Assembly (NCBI RefSeq): GCF_037975245.1
Contig: NC_092563.1
Coordinates: 26,345,960 to 26,409,959 of the forward strand
Direction: 5' to 3'
Length of the DNA: 64,000 bases
Origin: Apostichopus japonicus
Taxonomy: Eukaryota > Echinodermata > Holothuroidea > Aspidochirotida > Stichopodidae
Both the position numbers and the translations under genes were made by a program. Positions 1-25,897 of this stretch are shown piece after piece (within the stretch, counting starts at the first letter, position 1; the number at the start of each line of letters is the position of its first letter). A model generated the notes under the pieces. The model ran no database searches and was not told where the DNA came from. It saw only the letters and a list, made by a program, of their open reading frames with translations.

Positions 1-300
1 ACAAGATTCACTTCTTGAGATATCGTGTTTACAAGCTGGGCGTCACAAACGCACACACATACACACACATGTTTGTGTTTCATTCAGACCGAGGACCCCA
101 TTGTATTTTCCATTGTTCAAATTCACGTACCCTAACTTTAACAATACCCCATACAATAGAATTCTTCCGAGGACGTGGTGATTCTTTAGAAATCACAACC
201 GAGGACCTGAAATTCTTTTGTTCAAGTCCTCGGTCAGATAGCAAAACAAACGCACACACGCACGCATGATTGCAAAGGTTACGATTGTCATCGAAACCCA
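1..300. repeat. Low-complexity repeat insertion with CCGAGGAC motifs
   Basis: This stretch is flanked by CA/GT-rich runs at about 48-70 and 248-266. It carries the motif CCGAGGAC three times in direct orientation and once inverted. The pair at 198-236 could form a 9-bp-arm hairpin. It sits where intron 8 of the left SIAE copy should continue and has no counterpart in the right copy, so it looks like an insertion. Its GTAACCTTTGCAATC-GTGTGTG-like stretch on the minus strand resembles the repeat at about 27940. No gene is seen. Confidence 0.4.
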
Positions 301-764
301 AAATTGCATATCTAGTAGTCCTTATTACTGCCTTCATATTTTTATAGAGATTATTTTTACCATTCATTTCTGGTTGCCAACTTTTTATACTACATACACA
401 CCAGCTCAGTTATGAATTATTGAATTCTGTTGCCTTCTGTAGCACCAGTGATGAAATGGGCCATTAAGATTAATACTGTTATGACATGTGTGAAGATACA
501 TGTCAGATTGTAACTTCACTTGCTAGAAAGAACCACTTAACGAAAGGACAGACCAGATTTGGAAACATGGCAACAGGGAGGGGGCAAATAGGTATCTGAG
601 ATTGGCGAGGTGAGGATGGGGGCTGGCCAGAGAACAGGAGGACAAGGATGCAAAGAAATTAGGATAGATGATTGAATACAATAATTAGAAATGAATGATT
701 ATCCACGATGAAGAATGTAAAGTCACATTAACCGATATAACAATAACTCTGACAGTCCACTTAC

Positions 765-919
765 GCATCATCCGGTGATTCAGGATCAGGCAGGTCCAAC
801 GACACAGCCATGAACACTTTTTCCATCATAGGATTAGGAACATAACCGTAACTCGCAGTCTGAGCCCGGCGGATTAATGGATAGTTGGTATTGATGCAAG
901 GAACGTTAGAAGTACACAG
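765..919 (-). CDS. SIAE: SIAE paralogue exon 8
   Basis: It is 155 nt in phase 0 to 2, with acceptor CAG at 922-920 and donor GT at 764-763. It encodes 51 residues including Y-G-Y-V-P-N-P. About ten residues differ from the intact gene's exon 8, far more than in exon 7. Confidence 0.8.
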
Positions 920-982
920 CTGAAAGATTATCACAGAAATACCACATTATTTCAATTGATGACAAAACAGTATGCACTCTTG

Positions 983-1128
983 ACCCAGAGGTATGGGGTG
1001 GGAGCAGTGGGGCCATGAACCCCAACATCCAAATGTAAAGGGTGGCAGCAGTGGGGCCATGAACCCCAACCTCCAAAGGTAAGGGGTGGGAGACGTGGGG
1101 TTAAGAACCCCAACCTCCATCATCAGTT
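983..1128. repeat. 44-bp minisatellite, about 3 units (left copy)
   Basis: Units contain GGGGTGGGAGCAGTGGGGCC and lie in intron 7 of the left SIAE copy. The same array, in reverse complement and with about six units, lies at 22325-22600, so the array predates the inverted duplication and changed copy number afterwards. Confidence 0.85.
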
Positions 1129-1266
1129 GGGGCTAAATCATTCTTATTTATCTTAAATTTAGTCTGGAAAGAATTGTTTCAGAGAAGGTCAGACAAAACT
1201 GAGGGCATTAAACAATGGCAATGATAAGGTTGTAACCAGGATAGATACAGTTTGTTTCATCCTCAC

Positions 1267-1397
1267 CTGCACAAAACCAAATGGGAAGGCTACTTCGGTG
1301 TTTCCTCCCGTCCCTTCATACCACTTACGACGCCAGTCGTTAATCATCGCAGGAAATAAGCAAGCATATCTATCGGATTCAGCGGCGTTAGCTTCTC
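1267..1397 (-). CDS. SIAE: SIAE paralogue exon 7
   Basis: It is 131 nt, the same length and phase as exon 7 at 21348-21478, and differs from it at only about four bases by eye. It encodes the G-E-A-N block, matching the oxyanion-hole Asn motif of the SASA/SGNH family, then S-D-R-Y-A-C-L-F-P in the shared part. Only one residue differs (Ser to Ala). Confidence 0.85.
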
Positions 1398-2110
1398 CTG
1401 CAAGAGAAGATGAAATCATTTCAAATCATTCTACAGTCAAAACTGTCAAACAAACGATTTGGGAAAGGATGCTTCAGATTAGTTAGTTAGATTTCTAATT
1501 GTTTATCATTTATAGTCTGCCAAAAAAACTATATATACTTCTGAGGTATTTACGTGTTACATATCAGCACAAATAATAAAATAAAATCTTACTTTTACGA
1601 AGAAAATACTCCACATTCAGTGCCAGCTTGAAACTACCCTTGGTCTAGCCAACGACCCAAATCAACCTTCGGGCCTTTGAACACAATCTCCTTATTCATT
1701 GCCTGTATTGCCTCAAGATCTTACTGAAAATACAGCTCTTCTCTCAGTATCTTCAACATCCTCACTCCTCCATCCTCCCCCAAAAGACGCAAATACACAC
1801 ACAACAACTCCCTTTATACCTCACCATAGTACAACACCCTTCCCATCCGACCATACCCACCAAAGAAATGACAAATTTTGCTCAAATTGTTTTTATTGCT
1901 CCCAACTGACCTAATCTAGTTCAAAAGCAGGAATATATGCTTTGATGTTCCTAATATATAAATGTATAAAAATGACAGACATACCTTGATGCCATAAAAC
2001 TCCTTTGATGGTGAAATTTAACAATGGATGAATCATAGCGTTCCATAATATGCTTTCTCCACTCGGACCTTCCACCCCCATTCTCTCCCAGATATTCATT
2101 GGCTTCGACA

Positions 2111-2391
2111 TATACAAAAGTCTACTTGGATTATCTTGTTCCCTGATTTTCTTTCTGCAGACGCCCATGTATTTCTCCAAACTAAATTTCTAAGCCATGA
2201 GATCTAAAACTTAAGGAGGTTTAGGAGCATCATTAGGTCTGGGAAGTGTTATTTCCGGCGATCTGGAAGGTATATTTGCCCCAAAAAAATCGTACGCTAC
2301 GCGCGAACCCATGGTCGTGCTCCGCTTAGATAGTGTCATAGAACAGACACGCGTCCCCACCATTATCCAAGACTGATCTGCGCCCATGCTC
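2111..2391. repeat. Dispersed repeat at the SIAE breakpoint
   Basis: This segment matches 31820-32096 closely. The shared block starts at TATACAAAAGTCTACTTGG in both places, precisely where SIAE homology ends here. It ends at a GCCCATGC motif in both. It contains one copy of the GC-rich core module (2290-2335). On the plus strand it also shows a pyrimidine tract followed by CTGCAG at about 2136-2160, which resembles a splice acceptor. Confidence 0.75.
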
Positions 2392-6986: not shown

Positions 6987-7059
6987 ATGTCGCTCAGATA
7001 CTCACAGGATTTGATTTATGCTGTGATTGCCCTCTGCATGTCATCGGCATACATTTGTG
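6987..7059 (+). CDS. SIAE: SIAE exon 1 (signal peptide)
   Basis: It encodes 24 residues starting M-S-L-R-Y-S, with a hydrophobic core L-I-Y-A-V-I-A-L, ending in phase 1 before a GTATGA donor. The ATG follows GCCAAA. Splicing to exon 2 gives C-D-G-A-S-T-G-N, the start of the mature protein. Confidence 0.85.
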
Positions 7060-10000
7060 GTATGAACTGGTCTTTATTCTTAAGTTTAAAGGCGTATTTC
7101 AAGCCGGTCAGACAACACTTTACGCCGAGGAGTATTAAATTTACTAGCTTAGGCTATATGCAATAGGCCCTCATCATGCTAGTCTAGGCCGAGGTTAAGA
7201 AACGTCTGAAGTTGTTATTATCGCGTGAATCATTTACACCAGTGGCAATTTGTAGCCATAACCTACATTCACATTAACATGAACTAATCGCACTTGTTTT
7301 TACTCCTAGGCAGCATAAAAGAGCACTAATTTGTATGATTACAAGGGACGAAATAGTTTTAGAGAATTGATTAGCAATAATTGCTCGACAATTCTTGGAA
7401 ATAGCAATTAGCATTAGCAGGTACTGCATCTTTTGCTAATCAAAAGTAATATTGATTAGCAACTGGCAATTCTTGGGTAGCAAATTGCTATGCGAACCCA
7501 GTTATTTTGCCCCTTGGATTAGAAGGAGTTTTACATATTGGTTGAGGAAATAAATTATGCACACACACAGTACACTTGACTTTGGCAGTAAGGCCTTTGA
7601 CAATAGGTACAGACATCAAATTTTAAACAACTAAGCTAGTATATGCTTTGTAGGGGAAGAGGGTGTGGAATTGGGTTGGTACGTTGTTGGTTAAGCTGGT
7701 AAGTTGCATTCAATGATATAGAGAGTGTTTATTACAGTCAATGTTCATGAGTTCTCTTGATCTTGGCAAAGAGAGAAAAAAAATGTTAACCATGAAAGAA
7801 CCTACTGTATGTAGCATGGTGGATTGGTGGGCTCATAATTGACACACTTAAGGATTTGATCAACGATGTCTATCAAGGAAAAAATCCAATCATTCAACTG
7901 TATGTGTTTTTCGTATGTGTAGTTCCTCCAAAATGTTATGATCTCAAAATATTTAAGGTTCTGTGCTTATGCACCGTACAATTGATTAGTATTTGACCAC
8001 AAAATGTCTGCCGTATCAAGTTCTTTCATACCCCTAAATTGACACATGCGTCGATAAACTAACTGTAGTGTAGGCTTCAGTAAACATCCATTGACTTTGG
8101 ATGCTGTTTGCAATGCTCTGAGCCTCTTAGCTCAGACAGGTCAGGTCCCAGAGAGTAGCGTTATCATATTGAGTTAATGTTGGTTATTTTTAGGGTGTAA
8201 GATTTCCAAATGTCCAAAAATTGTGCAAAACTGGGGGGAGGGTGTTAAAAGTTTAAAAAGTACCACAATTTAGTCGGCAAATAGCTGAAATGGATTCAAA
8301 CTCATGAAATATGTGATTCTGCTTGACTGCAAAAGTTTAGGTTGCCTGCTGTATCATTGCAAGTAATAACTGAAGGTGCGTCAATTACGGGGGTGCGTCA
8401 ATTATGAAGCCTTTACTATACTTGAAATGGTTATGCGACATTCAGTTCTGTATATATTATAGCTTTTCAATGTTGCGAACCATCTAATATTGTAAGTAAT
8501 ATCAATCAATTTTGAATCGAGGTAATGAATTGTCAATGAAGATTGCCATCCAAAGAATTTCACTGTGCATATTTACAATTGCTTTCATCTGGTTCATAAC
8601 CTCATTTCTGCAGATGGAGCATCTACAGGCAACCTCTCTTTGGCCTCTTACTACAGTGATCATATGGTTCTCCAGATGGGCCCCAAATCTGCAATCATAT
8701 GGGGTTATGCAAATGCTGGACAAAAGATAGCTGTGACTTTCAAAGAAAAACTTTACAAAGCTGTTGCAACACCAGGTGAAGAATCAGTTCATTAGGATTG
8801 TATGAATTATTCAACAATAGCTTGTGGAATTTTTGCAGTATACTACTTCACATAAAATGGATTGAGCATTTATTCTTGTTGTGACACATTGCTTTCAACG
8901 TATTCATCCCTCTGCAGTCACTGAATGTAATATAAATAATATGGCATCTGGAGGCCAGTTTCCATTTATTCACTAAATGGGGAAAAACTGTTTATCAGAA
9001 CCGTTTAACGGTCTTATTCCAGCACAGTTTGTTAGCCATGTTCTTGCTTTCTTGGGCAAGTTTAAGTCTGAAGGCTTCTAAACATTCACTATACATGGAA
9101 ATTATGACTTGTTTGTTTCCATTTTCTCTTCTTATGCAAAACAATTTTTCGCAACCAGCTTCTCCTCACATGGAGTTAAACAACAAGTCTTTATCGCTAG
9201 TGAACTGTCACCAATTGCCTTGTCCCAAAGACACAGGTCTCTTCTTTGCAAAAAATCTTGGCAAGAGTACAAGACTACCAAGTACACACTCAGTCCTACA
9301 TATATGCTGTGTTGTATAAATTACTGTAGCAATTCCATTTGTCTTTATGCAACAATAGTACCTGGGAGAAAATTAATAAAAAATCCTACATATATGCTGT
9401 GTTGTATAAATAACTGTAGCAATTCCATATTTCTTTATGCATAACAATGGTACCTGGGAGAAAATTAATAAAAAAATTAAACCTGTGACATTTCTTAGTT
9501 CAAGTATCATTTTATTATGTTAGTTCAACTATCAGTATCATCTCCAGATGTTATTAGCTTATTACCAGAGCAACTACAAGCTTGACATTGTGATCTTACG
9601 TGCTTTTTGTACTACATTTTTGTAGTAAAGTAATTGTGCCTAGATGCATGACTACCTTTCAGTATATATATTAAATGTTCATACTGGTTTATATAATGTA
9701 CTGTGGTACAATGTGTATCAAATGATTTCAGTTCCAATATGAGGGACAAGGTCATATTTTAAGATATGAAACATAACCAATTTCAAAAGGAAGGGGAGAG
9801 AGTGAATAAGTGCTTTGTTTGTAAACATATTTTATATTGGGGAAGGGATTGAAGTGGGTGGACACTACCACATGGTCTTGTTGTACTCCAAATGGAAGAA
9901 TGAAGCAATATACAAATTTATACAAGGTATACATATGAATACTACTCTTCCAACAAAACAAAAAAAGCCTAAAAATAATTTATCAGTACTCAATGGAGGA

Positions 10001-13000
10001 CTTTGTGCAAAATATATTAGAAATGAAAGTTCCTAGTAATATTTCTATAGCTATTCTGGTTTTCAAAATATTCATCTTTAAAATATGCTACATCTCTGCA
10101 ATCTCCTTTAAGTTTTAAGTTAATGATAATTCAGCTCCTAAATGCAGGCTAATGTTAATGTCAGTCCATGTTTTGCATCACATTCAACAACCCGAACAAT
10201 ATCTGTTAACTTTTAAGTAAATCACAAATATCACAATTAGTTTTCTTCCTAAAGAAATCCTTTCACTATAGGGCTGGACTGCTCAGGTTATGCAAGAGAA
10301 CACAACACTTGTATGAATTCACTGGTTTGAATCCTATTTTAGCCAATATTTCAAAGGATCTGAATTGAATTATTAATATTACTTTATTATAATTACTTCC
10401 AGGGTTATAGCCACGCCGGCCGGCGGCAGCCGTTGGTAACCGCCACTCACGTCTGCCGGCCGGCATTGGAAGTGAATAAACAGTCCACCGGCCGGCACAA
10501 AAAAATAGTAAAATGCTTGTGAAATACAACAAAAGTAACAAATTTATCTTTCCCTTGCCGTAAAACATGATAATAACGTCACCTTTTTATGTTATTTACC
10601 AAAATACCCTCGACCCCCACCGGGGCGTTGCCCTGGACCCCACCAGGGGCCCTTAAGCGGGCCCCTGGACCCCCGGCCGTGAGATGCGAGAGCTTCGCTC
10701 GCTACGCTTCGCAAATTTATTTAACCAGCGCTCACAATCTCCTAGCTATAACCCTGCTTTCTTCCTTTTTTCATCATCATCTAGATACCTTCTACTCCAG
10801 TGCAGTATGGAAGGTGGCTCTTGACCCCACACCTCCCAGTGGTCCTTTTAATATCACCATAACTACTGTCACTGACCACATGTCAGAGGGAGAAGAAATC
10901 CTACTGCAAGACGTCCTGTTTGGTGACATCTGGCTATGTAGTGGACAGAGCAACATGGCCTTCCCTGTACCAGCTGTACGTATCAAATAATTAGACTCTT
11001 AGAGGTCACTTCAGAGTAGATGACTATTTAAAGGATATATGTTCTCATTATATATTTTGTTTCATTCTGTATACTGTCCAGATTCTGTATAACTTTCTAT
11101 GTGTGGACAGAGAAGTTACCATCAGTAACATGCAAGAAATGTAATGAACACTTGCAAATAGTTGATGCCAAAAATATGAAAAAAAAACTGTTATAACATT
11201 TTCTAATAATGACTAATAGTGAAATAGTTGGATTACTGTAGATGGAATAGAGGATGCCAAAAATAAGTTTAGGAAACAAAGTTCTACAATGTTGTAATCA
11301 TGGATCTAGGAGTTACCAGTGCTCTCTATCTGCTTCACAATAACAATAGCAATTTTGTAGTCATGTAGTCGTGGATCTAGGAGTGACCAGTGCTGTCTTC
11401 TGCTTCATGCAATAACAATAGCAATGTTGTTGTCGTGGATCTAGGAATCACCAGTGTTGTCTATCTGCTTCATACAATATCAATAGCAATTTTGTAGTCA
11501 TGTAGTCATTGATCTAGGAGTTACCAGTGCTGTCTGTCTGCTTCATACAATAACAATAGCAATTTTGTAGTCATGTAGTCGTGGATCTAGGAGTTACGAG
11601 TGCTGTCCAGTCTGTCTGCTTCATACAATAACAATAGCAATGTTGTACAGGTAGTCATGTAGTTGTACTGTAGATCTAGGAGTTACCAGTGCTGTCTATC
11701 TGCTTCATACAATAGCAATAGCAATGTTGTAGTCATGTAGTCGTGGATCAAAGAGTTACCAGTGATGTCAGATCTGCTTCATACAATAACAATTGATAGC
11801 AATGTTGTAGTCATGTAGTCGTGGATCTAGGAGTTACCAGTAATGTCTATCTGCTTCATACAATAGCAATAGCAATGTTGTAGTCATGTAGTCGTGGATC
11901 TAAGAGTTACCAGTGATGTCAGATCTGCTTCATACAATAACAATTGATAGCAATGTTGTAGTCATGTAGTCGTGGATCTAGGAGTTACCAGTAATGTCTA
12001 TCTGCTTCATACAATAACAATAGCAATGTTGTAGTCATGTAGTCGTGGATCTAAGAGTTACCAGTGATGTCAGATCTGCTTCATACAATAACAATTGATA
12101 GCAATGTTGTAGTCATGTAGTCGTGGATCTAGGAGTTACCAGTAATGTCTATCTGCTTCATACAATAGCAATAGCAATGTTGTAGTCATGTAGTCGTGGA
12201 TCTAAGAGTTACCAGTGATGTCAGATCTGCTTCATACAATAACAATTGATAGCAATGTTGTAGTCATGTAGTCGTGGATCTAGGAGTTACCAGTAATGTC
12301 TATCTGCTTCATACAATAACAATAGCAATGTTGTAGTCATGTAGTCGTGGATCTAAGAGTTACCAGTGCTGTCAGATCTGCTTCATACAATAACAATTGA
12401 TAGCAATGTTGTTGTCATGTAGTCGTGGATCTAGGAGTTACCAGTGATGTCTATCTGCTTCATACAATAACAATTGATAGCAATGTTGTAGTCATGAAGT
12501 CGTGGATCTAGGAGTGACCAGTGCTGTCTTCTGCTTCATGCAATAACAATAGCAATGTTGTTGTCGTGGATCTAGGAGTTACCGGTGCTGTCTATCTGCT
12601 TCATACAATAGCAATAGCAATGTTGTAGTCATGTAGTCGTGGATCTAAGAGTTACCAGTGATGTCAGATCTGCTTCATACAATAACAATTGATAGCAATG
12701 TTGTAGTCATGTAGTCGTGGATCTAGGAGTTACCAGTAATGTCTATCTGCTTCATACAATAACAATAGCAATGTTGTAATCATGTAGTCGTGGATCTAAG
12801 AGTTACCAGTGATGTCAGATCTGCTTCATACAATAACAATTGATAGCAATGTTGTAGTCATGTAGTCGTGGATCTAGGAGTTACCAGTAATGTCTATCTG
12901 CTTCATACAATAACAATAGCAATGTTGTAGTCATGTAGTCGTGGATCTAAGAGTTACCAGTGATGTCAGATCTGCTTCATACAATAACAATTGCTAGCAA

Positions 13001-16000
13001 TGTTGTAGTCATGTAGTCGTGGATCTAGGAGTTACCAGTGATGTCTATCTGCTTCATACAATAACAATTGATAGCAATGTTGTAGTCATGTAGTCGTGGA
13101 TCTAGGAGTTACCAGTGCTGTCTATCTGCTTCATACAATAACAATAGCAATGTTGTAGTCATGAAGTCGTGGATCTAGGAGTTACCAGTGCTGTCTATCT
13201 GCTTCATACAATAACAATAGCAATGTTGTAGTCATGAAGTCGTGGATCTAGGAGTTACCAGTGATGTCTATCTGCTTCATACAACAACAATTGATAGCAA
13301 TGTTGTAGTCATGTAGTCGTGGATCTTAGGAGTTACCAGTGCTGTCTATCTGCTTCATACAATAACAATAGCAATGTTGTAGTCATGTAGTCGTGGATCT
13401 AGGAGTTACCAGTGCTGTCTATCTGATTAATGTAATAACAATAGTAAAGAAAAATGTTAGAAAACACAGGTCGATTCATATAGCAGTAGGTAAGAAAGGA
13501 ATTGTAGAATTTTAGCAAATAACATTTCAAACTTAAAACATGTCTGTAGTTCTGTCAAAAGTTTGTTCCTTAACACACTTCTCGCTGATTAGGTATGCGT
13601 TATGAAAGTCCATGGGCAAAGGAGCCCAATTTGATTTGGAGAGGTGGGGGTGAGGAGTTGGGGGGGGGCTGTAAAGATTTGCTCGAAAATGTATATAACT
13701 GAGATACAGTATGGAAGGGCATACTGCTGAGATCCTCCTCACCAATGAAAATTTGAATTCATTATATTGAGTGCCATCAGTGATCATAACAACATCTTGG
13801 ACAGAGAAGGAAAGCATGGAGTGTGAACTGTCAGAACTCCACAACATCTATGTCAGAGTAGTAGGGCAAGCTTAGAATGTTAGTCTCATTACCTAAGGCT
13901 GAATTTTTCTCTCTCATCAAGAAACATTATTGCAGTTAAGCTTTTTTTTTGCAGTGCCTGACACAATATCAGCATATTTACAAAAGGTACACTGAAATAT
14001 CTTGTTGGGAGGGGGATGGGGGGGGAGCTACAGCCCCCTGCCTCCTATGCCTATGTGAAAGTCCCCAAATGATTTTCCTGGTTAATTGGTGATTGGTCCT
14101 GAACTCCTTGGAACCAATTACACTCTAAAGCATGAGTTGCAACTCTGATGTTTTACTGTATGCTGCCAAGCCTCATCAAAACCTAGTTGGATTGTCAATA
14201 GTAGATAACTAGAACAGTGGGTTATCCTAAGGCTTTTAAGTTAAAGATCAAGTCCCCTCTGGTACAGTAGCTTCATTCATAATATGACAGCGTTAGTAGA
14301 AATGTGATCACATCTCAATGCTTCTGTCTGACAAATATGTTTTATTTCTCAACAAAAATTTACAAGATGAAATGGAATACTGCAATTTTCAAAATGATTC
14401 AGTTTCGTTCTTTGTTCTGTGCAAAAATATAATTACTTGTAATATTAGTTGTACAAAGCATATTCATTATTGAATCCTGCCCTCACTTTTGCAAAAGGCT
14501 CACTTGAGTGCACTTTTCCACTTGCATGGTGCTGTGTTAGTGCAGTATCAGTCAAAGGGCTCTTTAGAATGTCAGTGACACCATAGGTTAATTCACTCAT
14601 TGAAGGATGTTACATATCATGAGAGGCTAACACTTCTCAAAGTCTTTGTATGTAATTAGGTTGTGTAACTGAATGATTCAGCTAAAATAGATTGTCTTGG
14701 CTTTGAGAACTTTCAGCTTTCAAATTGTAGGTATTCAAAAGGTCATCGTTGTAAGGTTGGAGAAAGTTTGTAATGAAGGTTGACATGTTTTGCAGAACTT
14801 CTTTTCTCAGAGGGTTTTTGAAAGAGTTTGAAGATGGCTGTGGCACTTCCAAAAAACACCTGTGCAATAACATTCCTGCCAACCCCACACAGCCACAACC
14901 CACCCCTAAGAAATAGTGGGCTATAAAATGTTCCCTTGCAGCTTGGTTTAGAAAGTGGTACAGTAGTGTGTTAGCACCTCACCAGAACAACACCTTTTCA
15001 TATAGAAATTTCAAGTTTTTCCATCTAAACTGGTAACATTACCAAAGGCCTGTGCATTAACTCAGCGTCTGGTTCTGTGTCTTAAGAGCACAGCTTTTAC
15101 TTCAATTGTATATTCCAAGAATCAATAAAATTGATTAATATAGATTGATTGAGAAAATGACTCAGAAGCAAAACTAAGCCACAAATCAAAGTATTACATC
15201 ATTTTTATCATGAACATGGTAACAAAGAGTCTTCATATAAATACTGTTGCTATGGCAACTGGGTTATGTGTGTTTTTGTATTTTATTCATTTCTTACAGT
15301 TAAACAAACATTTAGGGCAAACACCATTATATATCAGCAAAAAATTTACTAGGTTTTTAGTATTTTAAGGCACCAGCAAGCTTCAAATATTATTTCTAGA
15401 GACAAACACAGTAATTACAAAATCAGACAATAATATTGTTATTGATTGATAAATATCTTGCCATATAAATTGCTTTGAAAAGATCAAACAAGCTGAAGGT
15501 AAGATTATATTTTCAAGTCATATGCACAACTAGGATAACACAAAGTGGGTGCATTTCCTCAGTTTGTTTTTCCAGTATACAGCCCAGGAGGTGTTACAAG
15601 ACATTTATGTTGTTTATTCATGTTAGATCATACAAGGAAAAAAAAGAAAAAAAAAATCAGAAATCTATTGTCTTTGTAAGTAAGGAATGAAACCCTAAGG
15701 GGCATCTAAATAGCATTTAACTGTTATGGCTAGAGACCGACCATACACAGTGGAAAACCTATTTATTGTTGTATGGCCTCCAAACTGCTCTAATGCATCA
15801 CAAAGAAATAGATTTGTGAAGTTTAAGGTCACAATATTGATAGATAATAATTGAGGATGAGCCCATGGATTTTGAATTATTGGTACTAATTTTTATACAG
15901 TCTTCTGGTTTTCACTTTGTATAGGTCCGGTTACCTTTTCATGCAAATTTTAACAAATTTCCATCTGTTTCATTATGAAATTATTATTGAATGAAAGGAT

Positions 16001-19000
16001 AATGAAGAGCATACAAGAGCAAACATGTACAAAGCGTCGTTGATTTCGTCTATGGTACGTGTACGACTTGCTTAGGGTTATTTTGTTATTCCACTATTCT
16101 GTAGTCACAATTGAGAGGGCTATAAAACTAGACCAAATTGAAGCCTTGACAATGTAATTACACCAACCCTGAAAGTTTTACGGTCGGTTGCCCTTTATCC
16201 TCAGTAGATAAAATATGCAATAATAAATAGACTAAAAAGAACTCTTTGTTGAGGGAAAAACTCTTTGTAGGGAAAAACAATATGGATTTGGTTTGAGAGG
16301 TTTTTTTAAAATTTTGTTTTAGATCCAATAGCTACTACTCAAATAATCAGTCAACTCCAGCATAAGTTCCAATTATTTTGCATAACGAGACGTATTTACA
16401 GAATCGTTGCTTTTTCTTCTAATTTCAGGTCTTCAATGCATCACAAGTATTGAATGATTCCTATAATCACCCAAACATTCGATTACTCGCAGTGAACGAG
16501 GTGTCTTCAACGACTCCGTACTATGACCTGAGCTCTTTATATGAACCGTGGTCTCTACCATCTCCCAGTTAGTATCTCTTTATTAATAATAATAATAATA
16601 ATAATAAACAGTTCTTATATAGCGCAACTTACAATAAAGTCTCGTCGCGCTGTACTTAACCCTGGTCATTGGTAACTTGTCACACCTACACACCAAAGTG
16701 TGCACATTTCAAACAATCTCTCCTGGGGCACCACAGTGCACCACAGCCACGTGTGCCCTGGGGGACTTCCCATAGGGTGCAGGCACAAACCGGCGCACGC
16801 AACTATATTTACAAGTCACCTCGCAAGTCCACATTTATACACCTGGGTGAAGAGAGGCAATGGAGATTAAGTGCCTTGCCCAAGGACACAACGCAATGAT
16901 CTGGCCAGGGCTTGAACCTGTAATGTTTACATCACAAGTCCACTGCCTTAACCACTTGACCACAATGCCCTTTCTGCATCTCCTCATTCTTTATTATTGC
17001 GACCTATTGCATTTATTTAACATTTTTGTTGTTTTTTTAGCTCATACCAGCATGCTGGTGTGAGCTATTGTTACAGTGCGGCGTCTATCACTCTATCACT
17101 CTATCATTCTATCACTCTATCACTCTATCCGTCAACAATTGGTAAAACCGCTCCCACTCGCACAGTGTTTGATGGAATTTCATGAAATTTCGACACAAGG
17201 ACCATTGGGTAAAGGGCCATCAGAGATGGTCCAAAATTTGGGGTCAAAGGTCACCTGTGGGCCGTAATGGGCCATTTTGTGGAAATACGCCAAATGCTTC
17301 TTCTCCTACAGATTCCATGGTACAATGTTGAGGGTTTGTCACGATAGTACTATGGTAGTTTTACCTTCAGGGTGTTCATGAATTTGAGATCAAAGATCAA
17401 CTAGGGGTCTTTTGTGGCCCGGACCGCGGCCCTATATTTTCAAATTGCTCCTGTTCGTACAGTGTATGGCCAATTATAATGAAACTTGGTCACAATGTTC
17501 CTCGGGATGAGAGTTACGAGGGGTGTTCGGAAAATTGAGGTCAAAGGTCATTTAGGGGGTCATCGGGGGTCATTCTTTGTAATATTTTCAAATATCTCAA
17601 TCTCCTCAAGATTTTGATGAATCATATTCAAAGTTGAACTGATGATTGTTGGATTGTGTATGAATAAGGTGATGCCTAAAAAATTTTGGTCAAAAGTTAA
17701 TTAATTACAATTAATCCCCATTGTTTAAAAAAATCTGAGCCTTCACTTTTTGCCAAAGCTCCTTTAATTTGTCTCCCAGTGTCTGCAGTGTTTGTTTACA
17801 TTTGTGGTTAAGCTCTGCAGAGGCTGTTAGTGGAATTAAAGCAGGACTGGGAGTTGTTATTAACTGTTGAACTGTAAGCATGAGAGCCCTATAGCCAATC
17901 AGCACTTGCCGATTCTTAGAAGTCTTTGAGCCTGAGGTATGTAGGCAGCTTGTGAAGTTATAAAGGGAGTGCTTGTGAAGTTATGTCTGCAAAGGTAGAG
18001 GGGAGAAGGTTTAATAAGGTACAGTAGGTCAGTGGTATTGTTTGAGAGAGTGGGTAAAATAGGATTTAAAGGGGAAAATAGGAATTACAGCCAGTGGTGT
18101 GGCCAGGATTCTGCTAACGGAGGGGGGGGGTATCCCTCACAGGCCCAAAATTGGTTTTGTGGGCCCTACATTTTTCAGCTCGAAAAGGTATGAGCTTCTG
18201 CACCATTGGTGCTCTAGTTTGTTGTTGTAAAAAACATTGGGAATATTACGCATGTTAGATTAACAAGTGACCAGACCTTGAATCCATCCTTGTACATTAT
18301 TTCACCAAATGACAGTTAATTAGTAATAGCAGGTAATCAATAAAAAGTATACTTGTTTCTTGCAAAATTTCAACCCCAAAAAATGTTTGCATATTGTGTC
18401 AGAGACATGCAAGCAAGGCAAATTAAATTTTCCAAACATTCTTTATTATACCAAAGTGAAATTTCTAATTGGGCATTACATACATGAATGAATGGACACA
18501 AGATGATCGCATATCATCAGTAGAGGCTGTTTCTCCAGGAATAATGTTTGGTGTCGGTTAAGCATATTTTTCTTTCATGAACATTTGAAACACAAAATGA
18601 GTCCCAGTCCTTCATTGGAAGGCTAGTTATAGAATGTATAAGCTACATTTCAAAGCAGGTGCACATGTCATACATGTACTCATCACACATTATTTTCTTT
18701 TATTTATAATTTGTAACAGTTTTCCAAATTTGAACCAGAGTGAAAAGATTTGTCTGTCGACATGTGATGTGGAAAGTGTATTTGCATGAACAGGCATCCT
18801 CAGGTACCATCTGTTATTATTGTCACTTTAGGTGGTTGATCTAATGGGTCCTGATCATCTGTTGTGGTCACTCTAGGTGGTTGAGCTAATGGAATCTGAT
18901 AAGTGACATTGTGGTCACTTGAGGTGGTTGAGCCAATGGGATCTGCAAAGTGACATTATGGTCACTTTAGGTGGTTGAGCCAATGGAATACGATAAGTGA

Positions 19001-22000
19001 CATGGTCACTTTAGGTGGTTGATCCAATGGAATACGATAATTGACATTGTGGTCACCTTAGGTGGTTGAGCTCATGGAATACGATAAGTGACATTATGGT
19101 CACTTGAGGTGGTTGAGCCAATGGAATACGATAAGTGACATTATGGTCACTTTAGGTGGTTGAGCCAATGGAATCTGATAATTAACATGGTCACTTTAGG
19201 TGGTTGAGCCAATGGAATCTGATAATTAACATGGTCACTTTAGGTGGTTGAGCCAATGGAATCTGACAAGTGACATAACAGAAATTTCCATTTCATATTC
19301 GTACCAAGAAAAAGCACAAGAAAGGTTGACGTGCCCATATTTGTATTGTCATATAGTGATAGGTCCATTGTTGTCCACATGATTGCAATTGAAAGATTTT
19401 CCATTGGCTGGGTTTGCACTTTGTGGTACTCTTTGTTTCGTTGACAGAAAGTCTTGGCGGTAACGGCAGTCAAGGATTTCTATACTTCTCGGCTGTGTGT
19501 TACCTTTTCGGAGTTGAGTTGCAACAGCATCTTAGGTACCCGATTGGACTGGTATCGGATAATTGGGGTGGTTCCTACATCCAGGCCTGGTCCTCGTCGG
19601 ACGTTCTCAAGAGCTGTCCATCTCAAATGTAATTATCGTCAGTTCTTTCTCTTAGTCTTCATAATGTCAGGAGCTGTATCATTTCCTTCGACAGAAAGCC
19701 TCGGCTACAGCAACAATAACAGCTTTTACTACTTTTCGGCGGTGTGCTATCTGTTTGGACTTAAGTTACATCAGCATCTCGGGTACCCAGTTGGACTCAT
19801 ATCAGACAACTGGGGTGGTACCCACATTCAGGCTTGGTCTTCACCCGATGTTCTCAAGAGTTGTCCAGCTTCAGTGTAAGATGTCTAAATGTTTGTCGTA
19901 AAAAGTGGATTTTTTTGTGAATCCACATACCCGTGTAGACTTGTGTACGTGGTTTACCGAGGCCGTCCCAAATCGAGAAGAAAAATATCACAATAAATAC
20001 ATGAACGACTTTTATTGCCTAAATATTGAAAACTTGAACATGGTTTGATTTATTTCCCATGCAGTCTCTCACACTGAGATTATTAAGATTGTTGCAAAGT
20101 AAATCTCTCTGAGATGATTGAAAACATATGAGAGTAAAACATTGACTACCAGCTGAAAGAGTTTGCCCCAGACAATGGTTGAATTTGATTCGCAAATGAT
20201 TTCACTTCACTTTCATATGCTCTGCTGATAGCTCAAGGAGACTCTGCAGTGTCACGACATTCCATTGCTTCCATCTTATCGAGGAATATCATTCCTTATA
20301 ACAGCAAATTATTGATATCAATGATGATATTCTCATATTTCATATGGAAATTAGAATAGATAACTGACTTAAAAAATGGAAAAAAAAATGGTGGATTTGT
20401 GTGCCAGAACAAAACTGATCTTTATCTCCATAGTTACAAGCTTTTACAAGAGGCTGGATAATTTAGTTGGTAGGTGCACAGAACTTGAAATCCTGTGTCA
20501 AGTTACTGGATGTCATGAGTCTTGCTCTTAGCCAAGGTTTCATTTTGCTCTATCAAGCTCAATGCATTTCGTAAACATGAAGTGATACTTGCAGACCTTT
20601 AATCTTAACAATCGTTTTCTGTTTTCCAGGGATGAGAAGCCCAAGAAGGTCGTGAATATATCGAAGCCAATGAATATCTGGGAGAAAATGGAAGTGGAAG
20701 GTCCGAGTGGAGATAGCATATTATGGAACGCTATGATTCATCCAATGTTAAATTTCACCATCAAAGGAGTTTTATGGTATCAAGGTATGTCTGTCCTTTT
20801 TCTACATTGAACATCAAAGCATGTATTTCTGCCTTAACTGGATTCGGTCAGTTGGAGCAATAAAAACAATTTGAGCAAACTTTGTCATTTCTTTGGTGGG
20901 TGTTGTCGAAAGGTGAGGGAAGGGGGGGGGGGGGGGTACTATTGTGAGGTATAAAGGGAGTTGTTGTGTATTTATTGTGTCTTTATGGGGAAGGATGGAG
21001 GGGTGAGGATGTTGATGATCCTGAGAGAAGAGCTGTATTTTCGGTAAGACTGTGAGGCAATATAGGCAATGAATAAGGAGATTCTGTTCAAAAGTCCAAA
21101 GGTTGATTTGGGTCGTTGGCTAGACCAAGGCTAGTTTTAAGCTGGCACTAAATGTGGAGTACTTTCTTCGTAAAAGTAAGATGTTATTTTCTTATTTGTG
21201 TCAATATCTAACACATAAAAACTTCAAAAATATATTGTATTTTTTTGCATATAGAAACTTAAAATATAAACAATTAGAAATCAGACTAACTAATTATTTA
21301 TTTGTCAGTTTGACTGTAGAAGGACTTCATTTCATCTTCTCTTGCAGGAGAAGCTAACTCTGCTGAATCCGATAGATATGCGTGCTTATTTCCTGCGATG
21401 ATTAACGACTGGCGTCGTAAGTGGTATGAAGGGACGGGAGGAAACACCGAAGTAGCCTTCCCATTTGGTTTCGTGCAGGTGAGGATGAAACAATCTGTAT
21501 CTATCCTGGTTACGACCAAGTTATTGCCAAACTTTTACTGGAATTCAGTTGTCATTTTCAAATGACAGTTTTTGATGGATAAATCATTTCTCGCTAAACC
21601 AAGTCCTTGGACTAGAGGAAGATCATGTATTTAACTTTCACGGTGCATGAGTAGTGTTTGATTTAAAGTTTGTACCAAGCTCTTAAAATGTTGAAATTAT
21701 GCACATCCAAATAATATTTGGGCTTATCTTAAATTGTCTTAATTAGTAACACCTAATCATGTTTGGACTGATCTTAAATTGTCTAAATTAGTTACACCCA
21801 ATCATGTTTGGACTGATCTTAAATTGTTTAAATTAGTTACATCCAATCATGTTTGGACTGATCTTAAATTGTTTACGTCCAATATTAATATTTCAACTGT
21901 CCTAGTTTTGATGTTTACTTAAGTTTCCCCTCATGAGATTAATTTTTCACAATATAATTTTTGAAATAACTGTTATAGTAAAGGCAGAATAAATGAATAG

Positions 22001-25000
22001 CTATTGTCTGGTATAATTCTTGGTCAATTTTGTACTCTTTCTCATTTCTATTTTGACCTTGTTTTCATATATGTGAAGTTGTTGTTTCTCTAAGGGCTCA
22101 ATGACCTTGGAAAAAGTTGTTGATAAAGAATTGTTATTAAAGTTCTCTTAAGGTCTTTAACAGGGGACCTACTTTTGACTGAAATATAGAAAGCAGTTGC
22201 TAGAGACTGTACAGTCATACTTTCCGTTTTCTCCATTGTTTAATGCCGTCATATTTGTCTGACCTTCTCTGAAACAATTCTTACCAGACTAAATTTACGA
22301 TAAATTAGAATGATTTAGCCCCAACTGATGATGGAGGTTGGGGTTTATAACCCCACGTCTCCCACCCCTTACCTTTGGAGGTTGGGGTTCATGGCCCCAC
22401 TGCTCCCACCCCTTACCTTTGGAGGTTGGGGTTCATGGCCCCACTGCTCCCACCCCTTACCTTTGGAGGTTGGGGTTTATAACCCCACGTCTCCCACCCC
22501 TTACCTTTGGAGGTTGGGGTTCATAACCCCACGTCTCCCACCTCTTACATTTGGAGGTTGGGGTTCATGGCCCCACTGCTCCCACCCTGTACCTCTGGGT
22601 CAAGAGTGCATACTGTTTTGTCATCAATTGAAATAATGTGGTATTTCTGTGATAATCTTTCAGCTGTGTACTTCTAACGTTCCTTTCAACGATACCGACT
22701 ATCCCTTAATCCGCCGGGCTCAGACTGCGGGTTACGGTTATGTTCCTAATCCAAAGATGGAAAATGTATTCATGTCGGTGTCGTTGGACCTGCCTGATCC
22801 CAGTTCACCCTACGATGCGTAAGTGCACTCTCAGAGTTATTGTTATCTGTTAATGTGACTTTACATTCTTCTTTGTGGATTATCATAATTTTCTAATTAT
22901 TGGATTCATTCGTCTATCCTAATTTCTTAGCATCCTAGTCCTTTGATCTTGAACGCCCACCCCCCCCCCTCCAATCTCCCAGTGATTCGTTCGAGCAAGT
23001 GAAGTTAAAATCTTAAATTTATCTTTACACATGTCATAACAGTGTTAATCTTAATGGTCCATTTCATCACTGGTTCCACAGAATTTAATAATTCAAAACT
23101 GAGCTGGTGTGTATGTAGTATACAAAGTTGGCAACCAGAAATGAAGGGTAAACAAATTTACTATAAAATATGTAGGAATTAATAAGAACCACTAGACATG
23201 TAATTTTATTATTTTGGCCGAAATATTTGGCTCGCAGTCCATATGTGGTGATATTGGTGGGGAATGTTGGGTGTAGTGTGTTGGGAATCGTAGATGCCAC
23301 TGCAACCCCCGCCCCCCGCTCACCCTCCTCCTGCTCAAATTGTTGTGTAGCCAGTATTTTATTTTGGTTGGCACATGGGGAGGGGTGTAAGGTGAAGGGG
23401 TATTCTATATCTTCTCTTTTGGAAATTAGCAGTGGTTGTTGGTGTCATCTGTATAGAATGGTTTTGAATGGGAAGAGAGTGCAGGAGAGTGGGAAGCAAG
23501 GGCAGGAGAGGTTAGGAGCTTTCCCCCTGGTGAGGCTTTTGCTCCCTAGTGTGTATGCTCTCATATAGATTCACATGTAATGCTATTCCAAGTAAATCTC
23601 TATTGTAGTATTGAAGCAAAGCAAGCATATTTTAGCAGAGAAGACCCACATGACACCGTTAATTCTATTGGGATGTTGATTTCTTCCGATGTAAGGTCTC
23701 ACAGAGGTATATTATTTTCTTTTTGTTCCAGAATTCATCCACGTGACAAGCAGGATGTGGCCCATCGTTTGGTGCTCGGTGCAAGAGCTATTGGTTACAA
23801 TGAAGCATACACTGAATTTCAAGGACCGTATCCCAGGAGGGTCTGCGGTATAACCAACAACAAAATTGTTGTTGATTATCAGTTTAGCGATGTCAAGCTC
23901 ATTTCAGGGAAATTATTCGAGGTAAGACTTTCTTGAGTGCATTCCTTCCCCTGTGAACACTCCATTGCATATCTTGCTTCGATTTATCAGAATATAAATA
24001 TGCCCAGAATTGGTCACAACTGAAATTCTCTTGCTTGATGATGACTTCACAGAAAAGCAGAAAAAGTTGGCCAACCATTAAAAATGGGCTCTGCTAGGTA
24101 TATTCAGTAGGTTTGAATGGTGGTTATTCCATTACCCAGTCAACCCAGGTGAATTATCCTCACAGCTGATTAAATTGAATGACAGTGACTGCTTATTAGC
24201 TGGTCGTGGAGGCACATAACCGTAAATACCCCCTCTGAACTTTCGATGGGGTGAGTGAGTTAAAATGGTGTGAAGTCATGTGAGAAGGCCTTGCTTTGAA
24301 ACAAGAATGTAAACCTTCAACATTGTGAAATACCTCAGAATCCAATTCAATACACAGCTCAGGTGTTACTCGATTAATTGTCTGCATTTTGTAAAGTAAA
24401 GCTTTCGAAATAATTGCACAGACCTCCAGTGGAACTGTTCAGCCGTGTGTCTAAACTGTCTACAGAAATATCTCAATGAAACGTTCGTTGCAACGCAATG
24501 AAAGTCATACAAAACAAAATATAGAGTTTACTCCATATATTTGCTTGGCTAGAGAATTTACGGACACAAAATGATATTTTATCAGAGATTGCTGTAGTCT
24601 GTCATGAGATTTTTTAAAAGCAAAACAGTGGATAATCTATGTCTGAATGAACTGAAAAAACATATGTTTGGGGTCAAGTGAGAAAACCGTTACCATGGAT
24701 ACCTTCGATGTGATCCGAAGTTCAAAGTGAACTAAGGTTGTATGATATCAAATTGAATAATGTACTCTAGTTATGATTCCTTGCCGGGGGCAGAAGGAAT
24801 TTATGAGATGATGATGGCGTGTGTGTTTGTTAGTGTGTGTGGGTTTTTGTATTTGACACTTGCTTATTCAACATGCTTGTTATCATGTTTGGTCAAAATT
24901 GGTGTAGTTTTGTGAAGGATCTATATAGGTCTTCAACAGAACAGTCATCCAGGAAATGAAATCTCCGTCAATCAGTCTATAGCCTTGCTTTAACCCACTC

Positions 25001-25897
25001 ACAAGGGCTCTTATCAGGTTTCACCCTCTGGGCATCTCAAATGGCACATTTTAATTAGCTCAAAAGGATCAACAGGTTATCTCAATTCGTGTCAAACTTG
25101 GCCATTTTCTCTGTGGTTTCTACTAGATGATATTTGCAGTGGCAGTGAGTTGTGAAAATATTTCTCAGTGTAGAAACCATGTCATGTAATTCTCATTTAT
25201 TAATAACAATTAGTCAAGGGATTGTTGGTAGCAGAACTGATTTGCTAGCTCAAAATGGGTAAAAAGAAAATGTTCTCTTATCCATAGATCTATGTCTCAA
25301 TATTTCACCTAGGAAGACTGTTCTTTCTGGATATTGAAATATTTTGGAATAAAAACCCTATATTGTAAAATCCTTGCGAGTGAATGACATGGTTGATGCC
25401 CACAAGGGAGTGCTACAAATAATAGCTGGAAACCTCCCATCTTTTCTGGTTCTCGCTTAAACTCTTGGACAAACGTAACTTCACTTGCTCTGCTTTAAAG
25501 TCAGATATTTATTTTGAAGTTTGAGCAAATTGTATGACAGGGAATCACAAAGCCCAACCTAGCTTTCTGGTTTTGTAACATGTTACTCAGTTTTAGCGAA
25601 AAGTACAGATGGACTACTTCAGTGAGCTGCTATCATTGATTGTCTCTGCAGGTCTGTTGCTACGACGAAGTCACCTGCGATCTAGAACCGGATGCCTGGA
25701 AGACGGCAGATGTTGTATACCAGGTGAATTCGACCTCTGTGATGTTGGGCTATCAGTGTGACAAGACTTACTCAGCTACTTACCTCAGGTACCTCTGGAA
25801 GGACATGCCATGCGAGTTTAAGAATTGCGCTGTCTATGGGGCCAAGAACGATTTACCTGGTCCTCCCTTTCTCCTGCCTGTCCAGAGTTGCGAGTGA
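6987..25897 (+). CDS. SIAE: Sialate O-acetylesterase (complete gene, 10 exon positions)
   Basis: Exons: 6987-7059, 8614-8775, 10785-10975, 16429-16567, 5A 19448-19628 or 5B 19695-19875, 20630-20784, 21348-21478, 22664-22818, 23732-23921, 25652-25897. All borders are GT/AG and the phases agree, giving 540 residues, close to the roughly 520 of vertebrate SIAE. The enzyme removes acetyl groups from O-acetylated sialic acids in the lysosome or secretory path. Residues 1-24 form a signal peptide. The catalytic serine lies in L-C-S-G-Q-S-N-M (Ser134). W-G-G (228-230) and Y-Q-G-E-A-N (299-304) match the oxyanion-hole blocks of the family. D-A-I-H-P (His398) supplies the likely catalytic histidine. 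N-glycosylation sites include NIT, NAS, NFT and NST. The start codon is the first ATG before the signal peptide. Exon 5 is duplicated, and a partial inverted copy of exons 6-8 lies at 765-2113. Confidence 0.95.
7060..8613 (+). other. SIAE intron 1
   Basis: The 1.55-kb intron has a GT donor and a TTTCTGCAG acceptor. At about 7370-7500 it carries several short direct and inverted runs around TTAGCAAT/ATTGCTA. No other feature is seen. Confidence 0.8.
8614..8775 (+). CDS. SIAE: SIAE exon 2
   Basis: It is 162 nt, phase 1 to 1, and encodes the N-terminal beta domain, including L-A-S-Y-Y-S-D-H-M-V-L-Q and I-W-G-Y-A, motifs typical of SIAE and its bacterial relatives. The donor is GTGAAG. Confidence 0.95.
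9296..9476. repeat. Tandem duplication of a ~90-bp unit
   Basis: Two adjacent copies begin TACATATATGCTGTGTTGTA and end GGGAGAAAATTAATAAAAAA. They differ at only a few positions, so the duplication is recent. Confidence 0.85.
10390..10730. repeat. GC-rich repeat pieces (GCCGGCCGGC and GGGGCCC types)
   Basis: At 10412-10498 GCCGGCCGGC-type palindromes recur three times. At 10606-10672 the direct and inverted motif CCAGGGGCCC/GGGCCCCTGG recurs. Base composition is sharply unlike the AT-rich intron around it. They look like ends of an unidentified transposon; no target duplication was found. Confidence 0.45.
10785..10975 (+). CDS. SIAE: SIAE exon 3 (catalytic serine)
   Basis: It is 191 nt, phase 1 to 0, with acceptor ATCTAG. 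It encodes G-D-I-W-L-C-S-G-Q-S-N-M, the nucleophile block, and an N-I-T glycosylation site. The donor is GTACGT. Confidence 0.95.
10976..16428 (+). other. SIAE intron 3
   Basis: The largest intron of the gene (5.45 kb). About 2.2 kb is the satellite at 11285-13445. From 13446 to 16428 the sequence is AT-rich with one G-rich stretch at 13640-13667 and another at 14009-14022; no further gene or element could be supported. Confidence 0.8.
11285..13445. repeat. Higher-order tandem array of 73- and 78-bp units
   Basis: About 28 units share GTAGTCATGTAGTCGTGGAT and CTGCTTCATACAATAAC. Type A (73 bp) has CTAGGAG and CAATAGC. Type B (78 bp) has CTAAGAG, a CAGATCTG insert and CAATTGATAGC. In the middle of the array A and B alternate as a ~151-bp dimer, and at the ends units are more irregular. 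It is confined to SIAE intron 3. Confidence 0.95.
16429..16567 (+). CDS. SIAE: SIAE exon 4
   Basis: It is 139 nt, phase 0 to 1. It starts V-F-N-A-S (a glycosylation site) and contains I-R-L-L-A-V. It ends L-P-S-P before the GTTAGT donor, and its last base A completes a Lys codon with either version of exon 5. Confidence 0.9.
16575..16980. repeat. Interspersed repeat with (AAT)n head
   Basis: It opens with an AAT/TAA microsatellite, then TTATATAGCGCAACTTACAA. It ends with GTGCCTTGCCCAAGGACACA and a GGGCTTGAACC / CACTGCCTTAACCACT stretch. This layout is familiar from SINE- or MITE-like repeats common in aquatic animal genomes. No target duplication was identified. Confidence 0.6.
17040..17700. 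repeat. Interspersed repeat with palindromic head
   Basis: It begins with a near-perfect palindrome AGCTCATACCAGCATGCTGG and its mirror, followed by a CTATCACT microsatellite (17083-17130). The body has several similar blocks of the type TTGGGGTCAAAGGTCA, spaced 120-170 bp, suggesting internal repetition. Confidence 0.55.
18090..18200. repeat. Fragment of a G-run transposon end
   Basis: CAGTGGTGTGGCCAGGATTC followed by a G run resembles the CAGTGGCG(T/G)-type ends of the hAT-like elements elsewhere in the window. No matching second end was found. Confidence 0.4.
18822..19275. repeat. 44-46-bp minisatellite, about 10 units
   Basis: Units read GGTCACTTTAGGTGGTTGAG followed by CCAATGGAATCTGATAA. 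Units vary at ACTTTAGG/ACTTGAGG and TCTG/TACG. The array ends about 170 bp before the alternative exons. Confidence 0.9.
19448..19628 (+). CDS. SIAE: SIAE exon 5A (alternative)
   Basis: It is 181 nt, phase 1 to 2, with a TTGACAG acceptor and GTAATT donor. It encodes K-S-L-G-G-N-G to P-S-Q-M, including Y-F-S-A-V-C-Y-L-F-G and S-D-N-W-G-G-S-Y-I-Q-A-W. The W-G-G block matches the oxyanion-hole region of SIAE-type SGNH hydrolases. It is about 42 of 61 residues identical to exon 5B. Exon 6 completes its last codon as Met. Confidence 0.85.
19629..19694 (+). other. 66-nt spacer between alternative exons 5A and 5B
   Basis: It carries the 5A donor GTAATT and the 5B acceptor TTCGACAG. A 66-nt intron is short enough that splicing 5A to 5B may be physically hindered, and that product would be out of frame anyway. 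Confidence 0.7.
19695..19875 (+). CDS. SIAE: SIAE exon 5B (alternative)
   Basis: It is 181 nt, with exactly the length and phase of 5A, and a GTAAGA donor closer to consensus. It encodes K-S-L-G-Y-S-N-N-N to P-A-S-V with S-D-N-W-G-G-T-H-I-Q-A-W. Splicing from 5A into 5B would hit a TAA stop within about nine codons. Hence a transcript should use one or the other. Confidence 0.85.
19876..20629 (+). other. SIAE intron 5
   Basis: Plain AT-rich intron, about 750 bp, ending in a TTTTCCAG acceptor. No repeat or regulatory element was recognised. Confidence 0.8.
20630..20784 (+). CDS. SIAE: SIAE exon 6
   Basis: It is 155 nt, phase 2 to 1. It encodes S-I-L-W-N-A-M-I-H-P and G-V-L-W-Y-Q, both family signature stretches, and an N-F-T glycosylation site. 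The partial paralogue at 1985-2113 matches from its I-S-K-P-M-N onward. Confidence 0.95.
20785..21347 (+). other. SIAE intron 6
   Basis: A G run lies at 20925-20937. The block from about 21080 to 21170 matches 1600-1690 inverted. Nothing else is recognised. Confidence 0.75.
21348..21478 (+). CDS. SIAE: SIAE exon 7
   Basis: It is 131 nt, phase 1 to 0. It completes Y-Q-G-E-A-N with exon 6, then encodes R-Y-A-C-L-F-P-A-M-I-N-D-W-R and F-P-F-G-F-V-Q. Acceptor CTTGCAG, donor GTGAGG. Confidence 0.95.
21706..21885. repeat. ~46-bp tandem repeat, about 4 units
   Basis: Units read AATCATGTTTGGACTGATCT followed by TAAATTGT(C/T)TAAATTAG. The first unit is the most diverged. The corresponding intron of the left copy (about 922-1266) lacks it. 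Confidence 0.8.
22325..22600. repeat. 44-bp minisatellite, about 6 units (right copy)
   Basis: Units read ACCCCTTACCTTTGGAGGTT followed by GGGGTTCATGGCCCC. Two unit types alternate: one with CATGGCCCCACTGCTCCC and one with TATAACCCCACGTCTCCC. The counterpart at 983-1128 has about three units. Confidence 0.9.
22664..22818 (+). CDS. SIAE: SIAE exon 8
   Basis: It is 155 nt, phase 0 to 2. It encodes R-A-Q-T-A-G-Y-G-Y-V-P-N-P-K-M and S-L-D-L-P-D, ending with Asp395 of the D-x-x-H pattern. Donor GTAAGT. Confidence 0.95.
22819..23731 (+). other. SIAE intron 8
   Basis: Its first 400 bp match the left arm of the duplication. A C run is at 22961-22971. After 23215 no match to the left copy was found inside the window. 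Confidence 0.7.
23732..23921 (+). CDS. SIAE: SIAE exon 9 (catalytic histidine)
   Basis: It is 190 nt, phase 2 to 0. It encodes A-I-H-P-R-D-K-Q, the histidine block of the active site, then L-G-A-R-A-I-G-Y and F-Q-G-P-Y-P-R-R. Acceptor TTCCAG, donor GTAAGA. Confidence 0.95.
23922..25651 (+). other. SIAE intron 9
   Basis: AT-rich, 1.7 kb. At about 24800-25080 it resembles the GATGGCGTGTGTGTG-headed repeat at 27940-28470. Otherwise nothing is recognised. Confidence 0.65.
25652..25897 (+). CDS. SIAE: SIAE exon 10 (C-terminus)
   Basis: It encodes the last 81 residues, cysteine-rich, with V-C-C-Y-D-E, Y-L-W-K-D-M-P-C-E-F-K-N-C and L-P-G-P-P-F-L-L-P-V, matching the family's C-terminal W-P-C-E / P-A-P-P-F pattern. 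The stop is TGA at 25895-25897. Confidence 0.95.
   Translation, partial: VCCYDEVTCDLEPDAWKTADVVYQVNSTSVMLGYQCDKTYSATYLRYLWKDMPCEFKNCAVYGAKNDLPGPPFLLPVQSCE

What the first reader, a model, noticed from the sequence alone, without database searches (positions are those of the whole stretch)
19448..19875. Tandemly duplicated, frame-locked alternative exons in SIAE
Exons 5A and 5B are both 181 nt, both phase 1 to 2, about 42 of 61 residues identical, and 66 nt apart. Using both brings a TAA within about nine codons of 5B; using neither also shifts the frame. The exon encodes the W-G-G oxyanion-hole block, so the choice could change the substrate pocket: 5A has G-S-Y-I-Q, 5B has G-T-H-I-Q. Seen in sequence: lengths, phases, motifs. 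Known: W-G-G belongs to the active site of SIAE-type SGNH esterases. Inferred: mutually exclusive splicing giving two enzyme forms.
Basis: partly seen in the sequence, partly recalled or inferred. Interest (0 to 1): 0.8.

Follow-up and report, generated by a model that had tools for sequence, protein, structure and literature searches.

The report
Twin alternative exons in sialate esterase
A sea-cucumber-like animal gene for an enzyme that trims acetyl groups from sialic acids carries two old, intact, interchangeable copies of the exon that builds part of its active site, and a neighbouring gene copy shows the same pair fused into one hybrid exon.

Summary
Two 181-nt exons (5A 19448-19628, 5B 19695-19875), both phase 1 to 2 and 66 nt apart, sit in a complete SIAE-like gene. 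Either exon gives an open 540-aa SASA-family protein. Using both, or neither, brings a stop eight codons after the junction codon.

The main new result is history. A tandem paralog about 30 kb upstream ('1b'; aligned introns mostly 80-95% identical) has one exon 5. Its 5' part and upstream flank are 5A-type; its 3' part and downstream flank are 5B-type. One switch explains 42 of 47 informative sites and 25 of 27 third-position sites. So the pair predates the gene duplication, and 1b probably lost it by one exon-internal crossover that removed one 247-nt period. Synonymous divergence is 1.23 for 5A-5B and 0.096 for 1a-1b outside exon 5. Both exons stayed open and constrained meanwhile (dN/dS about 0.16).

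Best explanation: mutually exclusive splicing giving two enzyme forms, enforced by frame and perhaps by the short intron. No transcript evidence was available. Tandem exon pairs of this kind are well known; this is a new member with an unusually readable history.

The parts
6987..7059 (+). exon 1 of the SIAE-like gene (1a), start codon, likely signal peptide
   Evidence: open frame and GT donor; signal peptide inferred from composition, not tested
8614..8775 (+). exon 2
10785..10975 (+). exon 3, with nucleophile block C-S-G-Q-S-N-M (role recalled)
   Evidence: GTACGT donor chosen to keep frame with exon 4, same in 1b
16429..16567 (+). exon 4; exon 5 then starts in phase 1
18822..19276 (+). about 47-nt minisatellite, about 10 copies, in intron 4 upstream of exon 5A; also present in paralog 1b
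19448..19628 (+). exon 5A, 181 nt, W-G-G-S-Y-I-Q
19629..19694 (+). 66-nt intron between 5A and 5B; the only full yUnAy branch site is A at +33; A at +36 and +53 are partial
19695..19875 (+). exon 5B, 181 nt, W-G-G-T-H-I-Q
20630..20784 (+). exon 6, enters in phase 2
21348..21478 (+). exon 7
22664..22818 (+). exon 8
23732..23921 (+). exon 9, with H-P-R-D-K-Q block (role recalled)
25652..25897 (+). exon 10 with stop codon

Best explanation
This is a SIAE (sialic acid O-acetylesterase) gene with a tandemly duplicated internal exon, spliced one at a time: exon 4 joins either 5A or 5B, and either joins exon 6. Exclusivity is most likely enforced in two ways. The 66-nt intervening intron puts its likely branch site near or below the roughly 50-nt limit from the 5A donor, so 5A-5B joining is hindered. 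Any double-inclusion or skipping product is frame-shifted and soon stops. The result is two esterases differing at 19 residues around one active-site block. The pair is old: it existed before the gene was duplicated in tandem. The other copy (1b) later lost it, most simply by a crossover inside the exons that deleted one 247-nt period and left a 5A/5B hybrid exon. Shown: anatomy, frames, mosaic paralog, divergence, constraint. Inferred: that both exons are used, the splicing mechanism, the crossover itself, and any change of enzyme specificity.
For: Both isoform frames are complete and match Pfam SASA equally (43.6 and 43.5 bits, cut-off 24.8); isoform A, the one searched, matches solved SIAE chains at E 4.5e-116. 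Double use or skipping gives an early stop. 5A-5B dN 0.197, dS 1.226 (bootstrap 95%: dS 0.61 to saturated; dN/dS up to 0.41); 0 of 2034 neutral runs as conserved in protein. Age: 1a-1b dS outside exon 5 is 0.096 (0.061-0.134; 473 codons). Mosaic: 1b exon vs 5A has dS 0.19 in the first 29 codons and 1.10 in the rest; vs 5B 1.48 and 0.14; one switch fits 42 of 47 sites and 25 of 27 third positions, 0 of 20000 shuffles each. Upstream of the exon 99 of the nearest 100 nt equal 5A's flank, downstream 37 of the first 40 equal 5B's. Intron: 66 nt against 26 of 26 estimated chaperonin introns of about 180 nt or more (from 54 of the 57 rows). The roughly 50-nt threshold is stated in PMC5740500 and PMC7969005 (passages).
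Against: No RNA data: use of either exon is unproven. A53 in the intron, 13 nt before the acceptor, could serve as a branch site just above the threshold, so steric blocking is not certain. Two AGs (41, 44) lie between A33 and the acceptor. The distant paralog on C6 shows one exon 5 only, and 1b lost the pair, so the pair is dispensable to at least one gene copy. Five of 47 mosaic sites do not fit one switch. dS is near saturation and rests on 61 codons; other estimators give 0.68 to 1.29.
Confidence: 0.8

Rival explanations
1. Only one of the two exons is normally used; the other is a frame-preserved relic or a rarely used poison exon that tunes expression by nonsense-mediated decay of double-inclusion products.
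For: Double inclusion gives an early stop, which fits a poison-exon role; paralog 1b does without a pair.
Against: Both exons keep open frames, near-equal donor scores (4.92 and 5.11, recalled human matrix) and equal pyrimidine counts before the acceptor (12 of 17 each), with dN/dS about 0.16 at dS about 1.2. A poison exon would not need its coding content kept.
Confidence: 0.14
2. The single exon of 1b is the ancestral state and the 5A/5B pair arose later in the window gene alone.
For: 1b and the C6 paralog both have one exon 5.
Against: 1b is a positional mosaic at 42 of 47 sites and at 25 of 27 third positions. The pair's dS is about ten times that of the gene duplication. The intervening intron is unlike 1b's flanks (26 and 19 of 60). 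This rival would need 5B to change almost only in its 5' half and 5A almost only in its 3' half.
Confidence: 0.03
3. The exon pair or the hybrid is an assembly artefact or haplotype mix.
For: The locus has tandem and inverted copies.
Against: 5A and 5B differ at 49 sites and their flanks are unrelated. 1b differs from 1a in most exons and has a complete 536-aa frame. The paper that fits this assembly by size reports PacBio HiFi reads.
Confidence: 0.03

Closest known systems
Mutually exclusive tandem-duplicated exons (MXEs; OGDH exons 4a/4b, PGM1, FYN, CACNA1 genes)
   Same: Neighbouring homologous exons, here with equal length and phases; frame-incompatible double use; short intervening intron. 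[quoted passage not shown] Human OGDH uses branch points 25-41 nt from the donor (PMC7969005, passages). Exon switching at catalytic sites is also known: 9 events in PMC7954323 (passages).
   Different: No transcript evidence here. The gene is SIAE; 'SIAE' had 0 occurrences in the main texts of PMC5740500 and PMC9741552.
Fates of tandem exon pairs after gene duplication (PMC9741552, section 12 read)
   Same: One gene copy keeps both exons (1a) and the other has one (1b), like PGM1/PGM5.
   Different: That section lists both kept, one lost, or a different one kept in each copy. 1b keeps neither as such but a hybrid of the two.
Solved SIAE (PDB 8f9o, 8f9p, 8f9q, 8f9r; vertebrate origin recalled)
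   Same: Related over nearly the whole length, E down to 4.5e-116; exon 5 block aligned.
   Different: All four chains have G-G-T after W; 5A has G-G-S-Y. The loop before the F-S-A-V-C helix is a few residues longer here.

Membership tests
SIAE / SASA esterase (Pfam PF03629) | whole-protein match above the curated cut-off | tested here: met
   43.6 bits (isoform A) and 43.5 (isoform B), cut-off 24.8
SIAE / SASA esterase (Pfam PF03629) | full-length relation to solved SIAE | tested here: met
   8f9r_A E 4.5e-116, query 33-534 of 540, isoform A only
SIAE / SASA esterase (Pfam PF03629) | nucleophile block S-G-Q-S-N and His/Asp block | tested here: met
   C-S-G-Q-S-N-M and H-P-R-D-K-Q aligned; catalytic roles of these residues recalled
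SIAE / SASA esterase (Pfam PF03629) | esterase activity on O-acetyl sialic acid | not testable with these tools
   needs protein assay
Mutually exclusive exon pair | adjacent homologous exons, same length and phases | tested here: met
   181/181 nt, phase 1-2, 42 of 61 residues
Mutually exclusive exon pair | double inclusion or double skipping unproductive | tested here: met
   frame shift with a stop eight codons after the junction codon in both cases
Mutually exclusive exon pair | both exons under coding constraint | tested here: met
   pairwise dN/dS 0.16, 95% up to 0.41; 0 of 2034 neutral runs; a pairwise test, not one exon at a time
Mutually exclusive exon pair | splice junctions of each exon to both neighbours, no productive joint use | not testable with these tools
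   no RNA reads held
MXE enforced by steric limit | branch site less than about 50 nt from the upstream donor | tested here: inconclusive
   full yUnAy only at +33, partial sites at +36 and +53, intron 66 nt

The most novel reading that the evidence does not exclude
The locus makes three versions of the active-site block of one enzyme: 5A and 5B by splicing from one gene, and a 5A/5B hybrid from the tandem copy. These may have different preferences among acetylated or methylated sialic acids. The hybrid would be a fate of duplicated exons not among those listed in PMC9741552 section 12: fusion of both into one constitutive exon by crossing over.
Probability: 0.35. Interest if true: 0.65.

Novelty: new member of a known kind. 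Interest (0 to 1): 0.5.

Why it matters
If both exons are used, an animal switches part of the active site of a sialic-acid esterase by splicing, a simple way to change which modified sialic acids are trimmed. The neighbouring hybrid exon makes the age and loss of the pair readable from a single genome, and gives a natural comparison: three versions of the same block in closely related protein frames.

Tried and rejected
PF03629 against the own genome found 0 matches; that does not show absence, and the protein was used instead. First exon borders for exons 1 and 3 gave broken frames and were corrected. began exon 6 one base late in its skip test; the value given here comes. Paper searches: SIAE (spelled out) with mutually exclusive exons, 0 papers; sialate O-acetylesterase with sea cucumber, 1 listed, on rabbit mucin; SIAE with echinoderm, 0; Apostichopus japonicus with mutually exclusive exon, 3 listed, passages of one read, where the exon term concerns Dscam. 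For hybrid or fused exon pairs: one search found 30 papers and listed 20, one search listed 3 of 3; by titles and abstract starts none describes such a case, and none of these was opened for it. So I found no printed report of this pair or of such a fusion, within those searches only. No other animal genome collection was on hand, so other species were not compared.

Full report
What was checked. I rebuilt the gene around them. It has exons 1, 2, 3, 4, 5A/5B, 6, 7, 8, 9 and 10 from 6987 to 25897 on the + strand, with GT-AG borders, and with either 5A or 5B it encodes an open 540-residue protein. Joining 5A to 5B runs into TAA eight codons after the junction codon. Leaving both out also shifts the frame and stops eight codons after the junction codon.

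What the gene is. Both isoforms match Pfam SASA (PF03629) above its cut-off. Isoform A, the one searched, matches solved SIAE chains over residues 33-534 (best E 4.5e-116). The exon 5 block aligns with residues about 172-224 of four SIAE chains, whose shared core there includes W-G-G-T and I-E-A-W-S-S. G-G-T is found in the five chains printed (of eight listed), in 5B, in paralog 1b and in the C6 paralog; 5A alone of these has G-G-S-Y. The tryptophan is not universal: the C6 paralog has S-I-G-G and chain 9ega S-V-G-G. That a glycine of an SGNH enzyme helps form the oxyanion hole is described for the family (PMC9063846, passages), but I did not show which glycine does so here.

Which organism. 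The own genome has 671,581,487 bases in 35 contigs. This fits by size the Apostichopus japonicus assembly of 671.60 Mb in 34 scaffolds (PMC10344927, passages); total and contig number are close, not equal. The name is an inference from size alone.

The tandem paralog. A protein search of the own genome gave 33 matches: the window gene; a second complete copy at C3:26303925-26322880 on the same strand (1b, 536 residues, open); an inverted fragment; and a distant paralog on C6. 1a and 1b align through much of their introns, mostly at 80-95% identity. 1b has one exon 5. Its sequence is a mosaic: of 47 sites where it agrees with just one of 5A and 5B, 22 favour 5A and 25 favour 5B, and a single switch fits 42 of the 47; 0 of 20,000 shuffles did as well. 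Third codon positions alone give 25 of 27 and 0 of 20,000. The upstream flank equals that of 5A at 99 of the nearest 100 bases and the downstream flank that of 5B at 37 of the first 40 (the next 40 match at 15 without gaps, while a gapped alignment runs on from 5B past exon 7 at 84%). The other flanks match at 26 and 19 of 60. Synonymous divergence agrees: against 5A, 0.19 in the first 29 codons and 1.10 after; against 5B, 1.48 and 0.14. The span from 5A start to 5B end is 428 nt and 1b's exon is 181, a difference of exactly one period, 247 nt. The simplest event is one crossover inside the homologous exons, between about exon bases 69 and 96, in a copy that had the pair. Of the five sites that do not fit, two lie in that switch zone and three at exon bases 18, 19 and 27; conversion or later mutation could explain them.

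Age and constraint. Outside exon 5, 1a and 1b differ by dS 0.096 (95% 0.061-0.134; 473 codons). 5A and 5B differ by dS 1.226 (lower bound 0.61; upper bound saturated) and dN 0.197. The four estimators gave dS 0.68 to 1.29 and dN 0.17 to 0.22, so dN/dS of about 0.13 to 0.33. The exon pair is thus several times older than the gene duplication, and both exons stayed open. In a neutral simulation 0 of 2034 retained runs (of 5000) had as few amino-acid changes. This is the strongest evidence here that both exons are used.

How it likely works. The 66-nt intron is short for this genome: 26 of 26 introns estimated from chaperonin genes are about 180 nt or more. That is a small sample of one family, from 54 of 57 rows, counting only neighbouring matches no more than 15 profile positions apart. 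The one full yUnAy branch site is 33 nt from the 5A donor; partial ones are at 36 and 53. Published work puts the limit for simultaneous assembly at about 50 nt (PMC5740500, PMC7969005; passages). So 5A-5B joining is probably hindered, and any escape product is out of frame. What chooses 5A or 5B is unknown; donor scores are near equal by a recalled matrix.

Against this reading. There are no RNA data. 1b and the C6 paralog each do with one exon 5. The steric step is inconclusive. Nothing shows that the two enzymes differ in activity.

Known or new. Tandem duplicated, mutually exclusive exons are a well-known kind. Nine events that touch catalytic sites are reported in PMC7954323 (passages), and loss of a pair in one of two gene copies is described (PMC9741552 section 12). 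I found no report of this pair in SIAE in my searches. The hybrid exon is the unusual part: not one exon lost but the two fused into one. I did not see it in the listings (20 of 30 shown; 3 of 3), which are a thin search.

One fact was mended on re-reading: the stop after skipping both exons lies eight codons after the junction codon, not at the second codon.

Noticed in passing
window 1-2135 (- strand), continuing left to C3:26344040 (L009): Inverted, truncated copy of the 3' part of paralog 1b (exons 6, 7, 8 and the tail of exon 10; the stretch with exon 9 missing), about 96% identical to 1b; a gene fragment between the two intact copies.
   Followed up: partly
C3:26303925-26322880 vs window 6987-25897: Divergence between 1a and 1b is very uneven: exon 3 nearly identical (dN 0.007) and exon 9 low (dN 0.034, dS 0), exons 6, 8 and 10 with dN 0.11-0.19; overall dN/dS outside exon 5 about 0.74 (0.47-1.17), suggesting relaxed or diversifying selection or patchy conversion.
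   Followed up: partly
window 19448-19485 (5A) vs 1b exon: In the loop before F-S-A-V-C, the differences between 5A and 1b change the amino acid in six codons; possible fast evolution of this loop, or conversion from 5B at three of the sites.
   Followed up: no
window 18822-19276: About 47-nt minisatellite of about 10 copies ending about 170 nt before exon 5A, shared with 1b; possible splicing regulator, untested.
   Followed up: no
window 11350-13450: Long intronic minisatellite with units of roughly 75 nt in intron 3; its copies align to a single stretch of about 70 nt in 1b.
   Followed up: no
C6:1027342-1027521 (L008): Distant SIAE paralog with a single exon 5 found and S-I-G-G in place of N-W-G-G.
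   Followed up: partly
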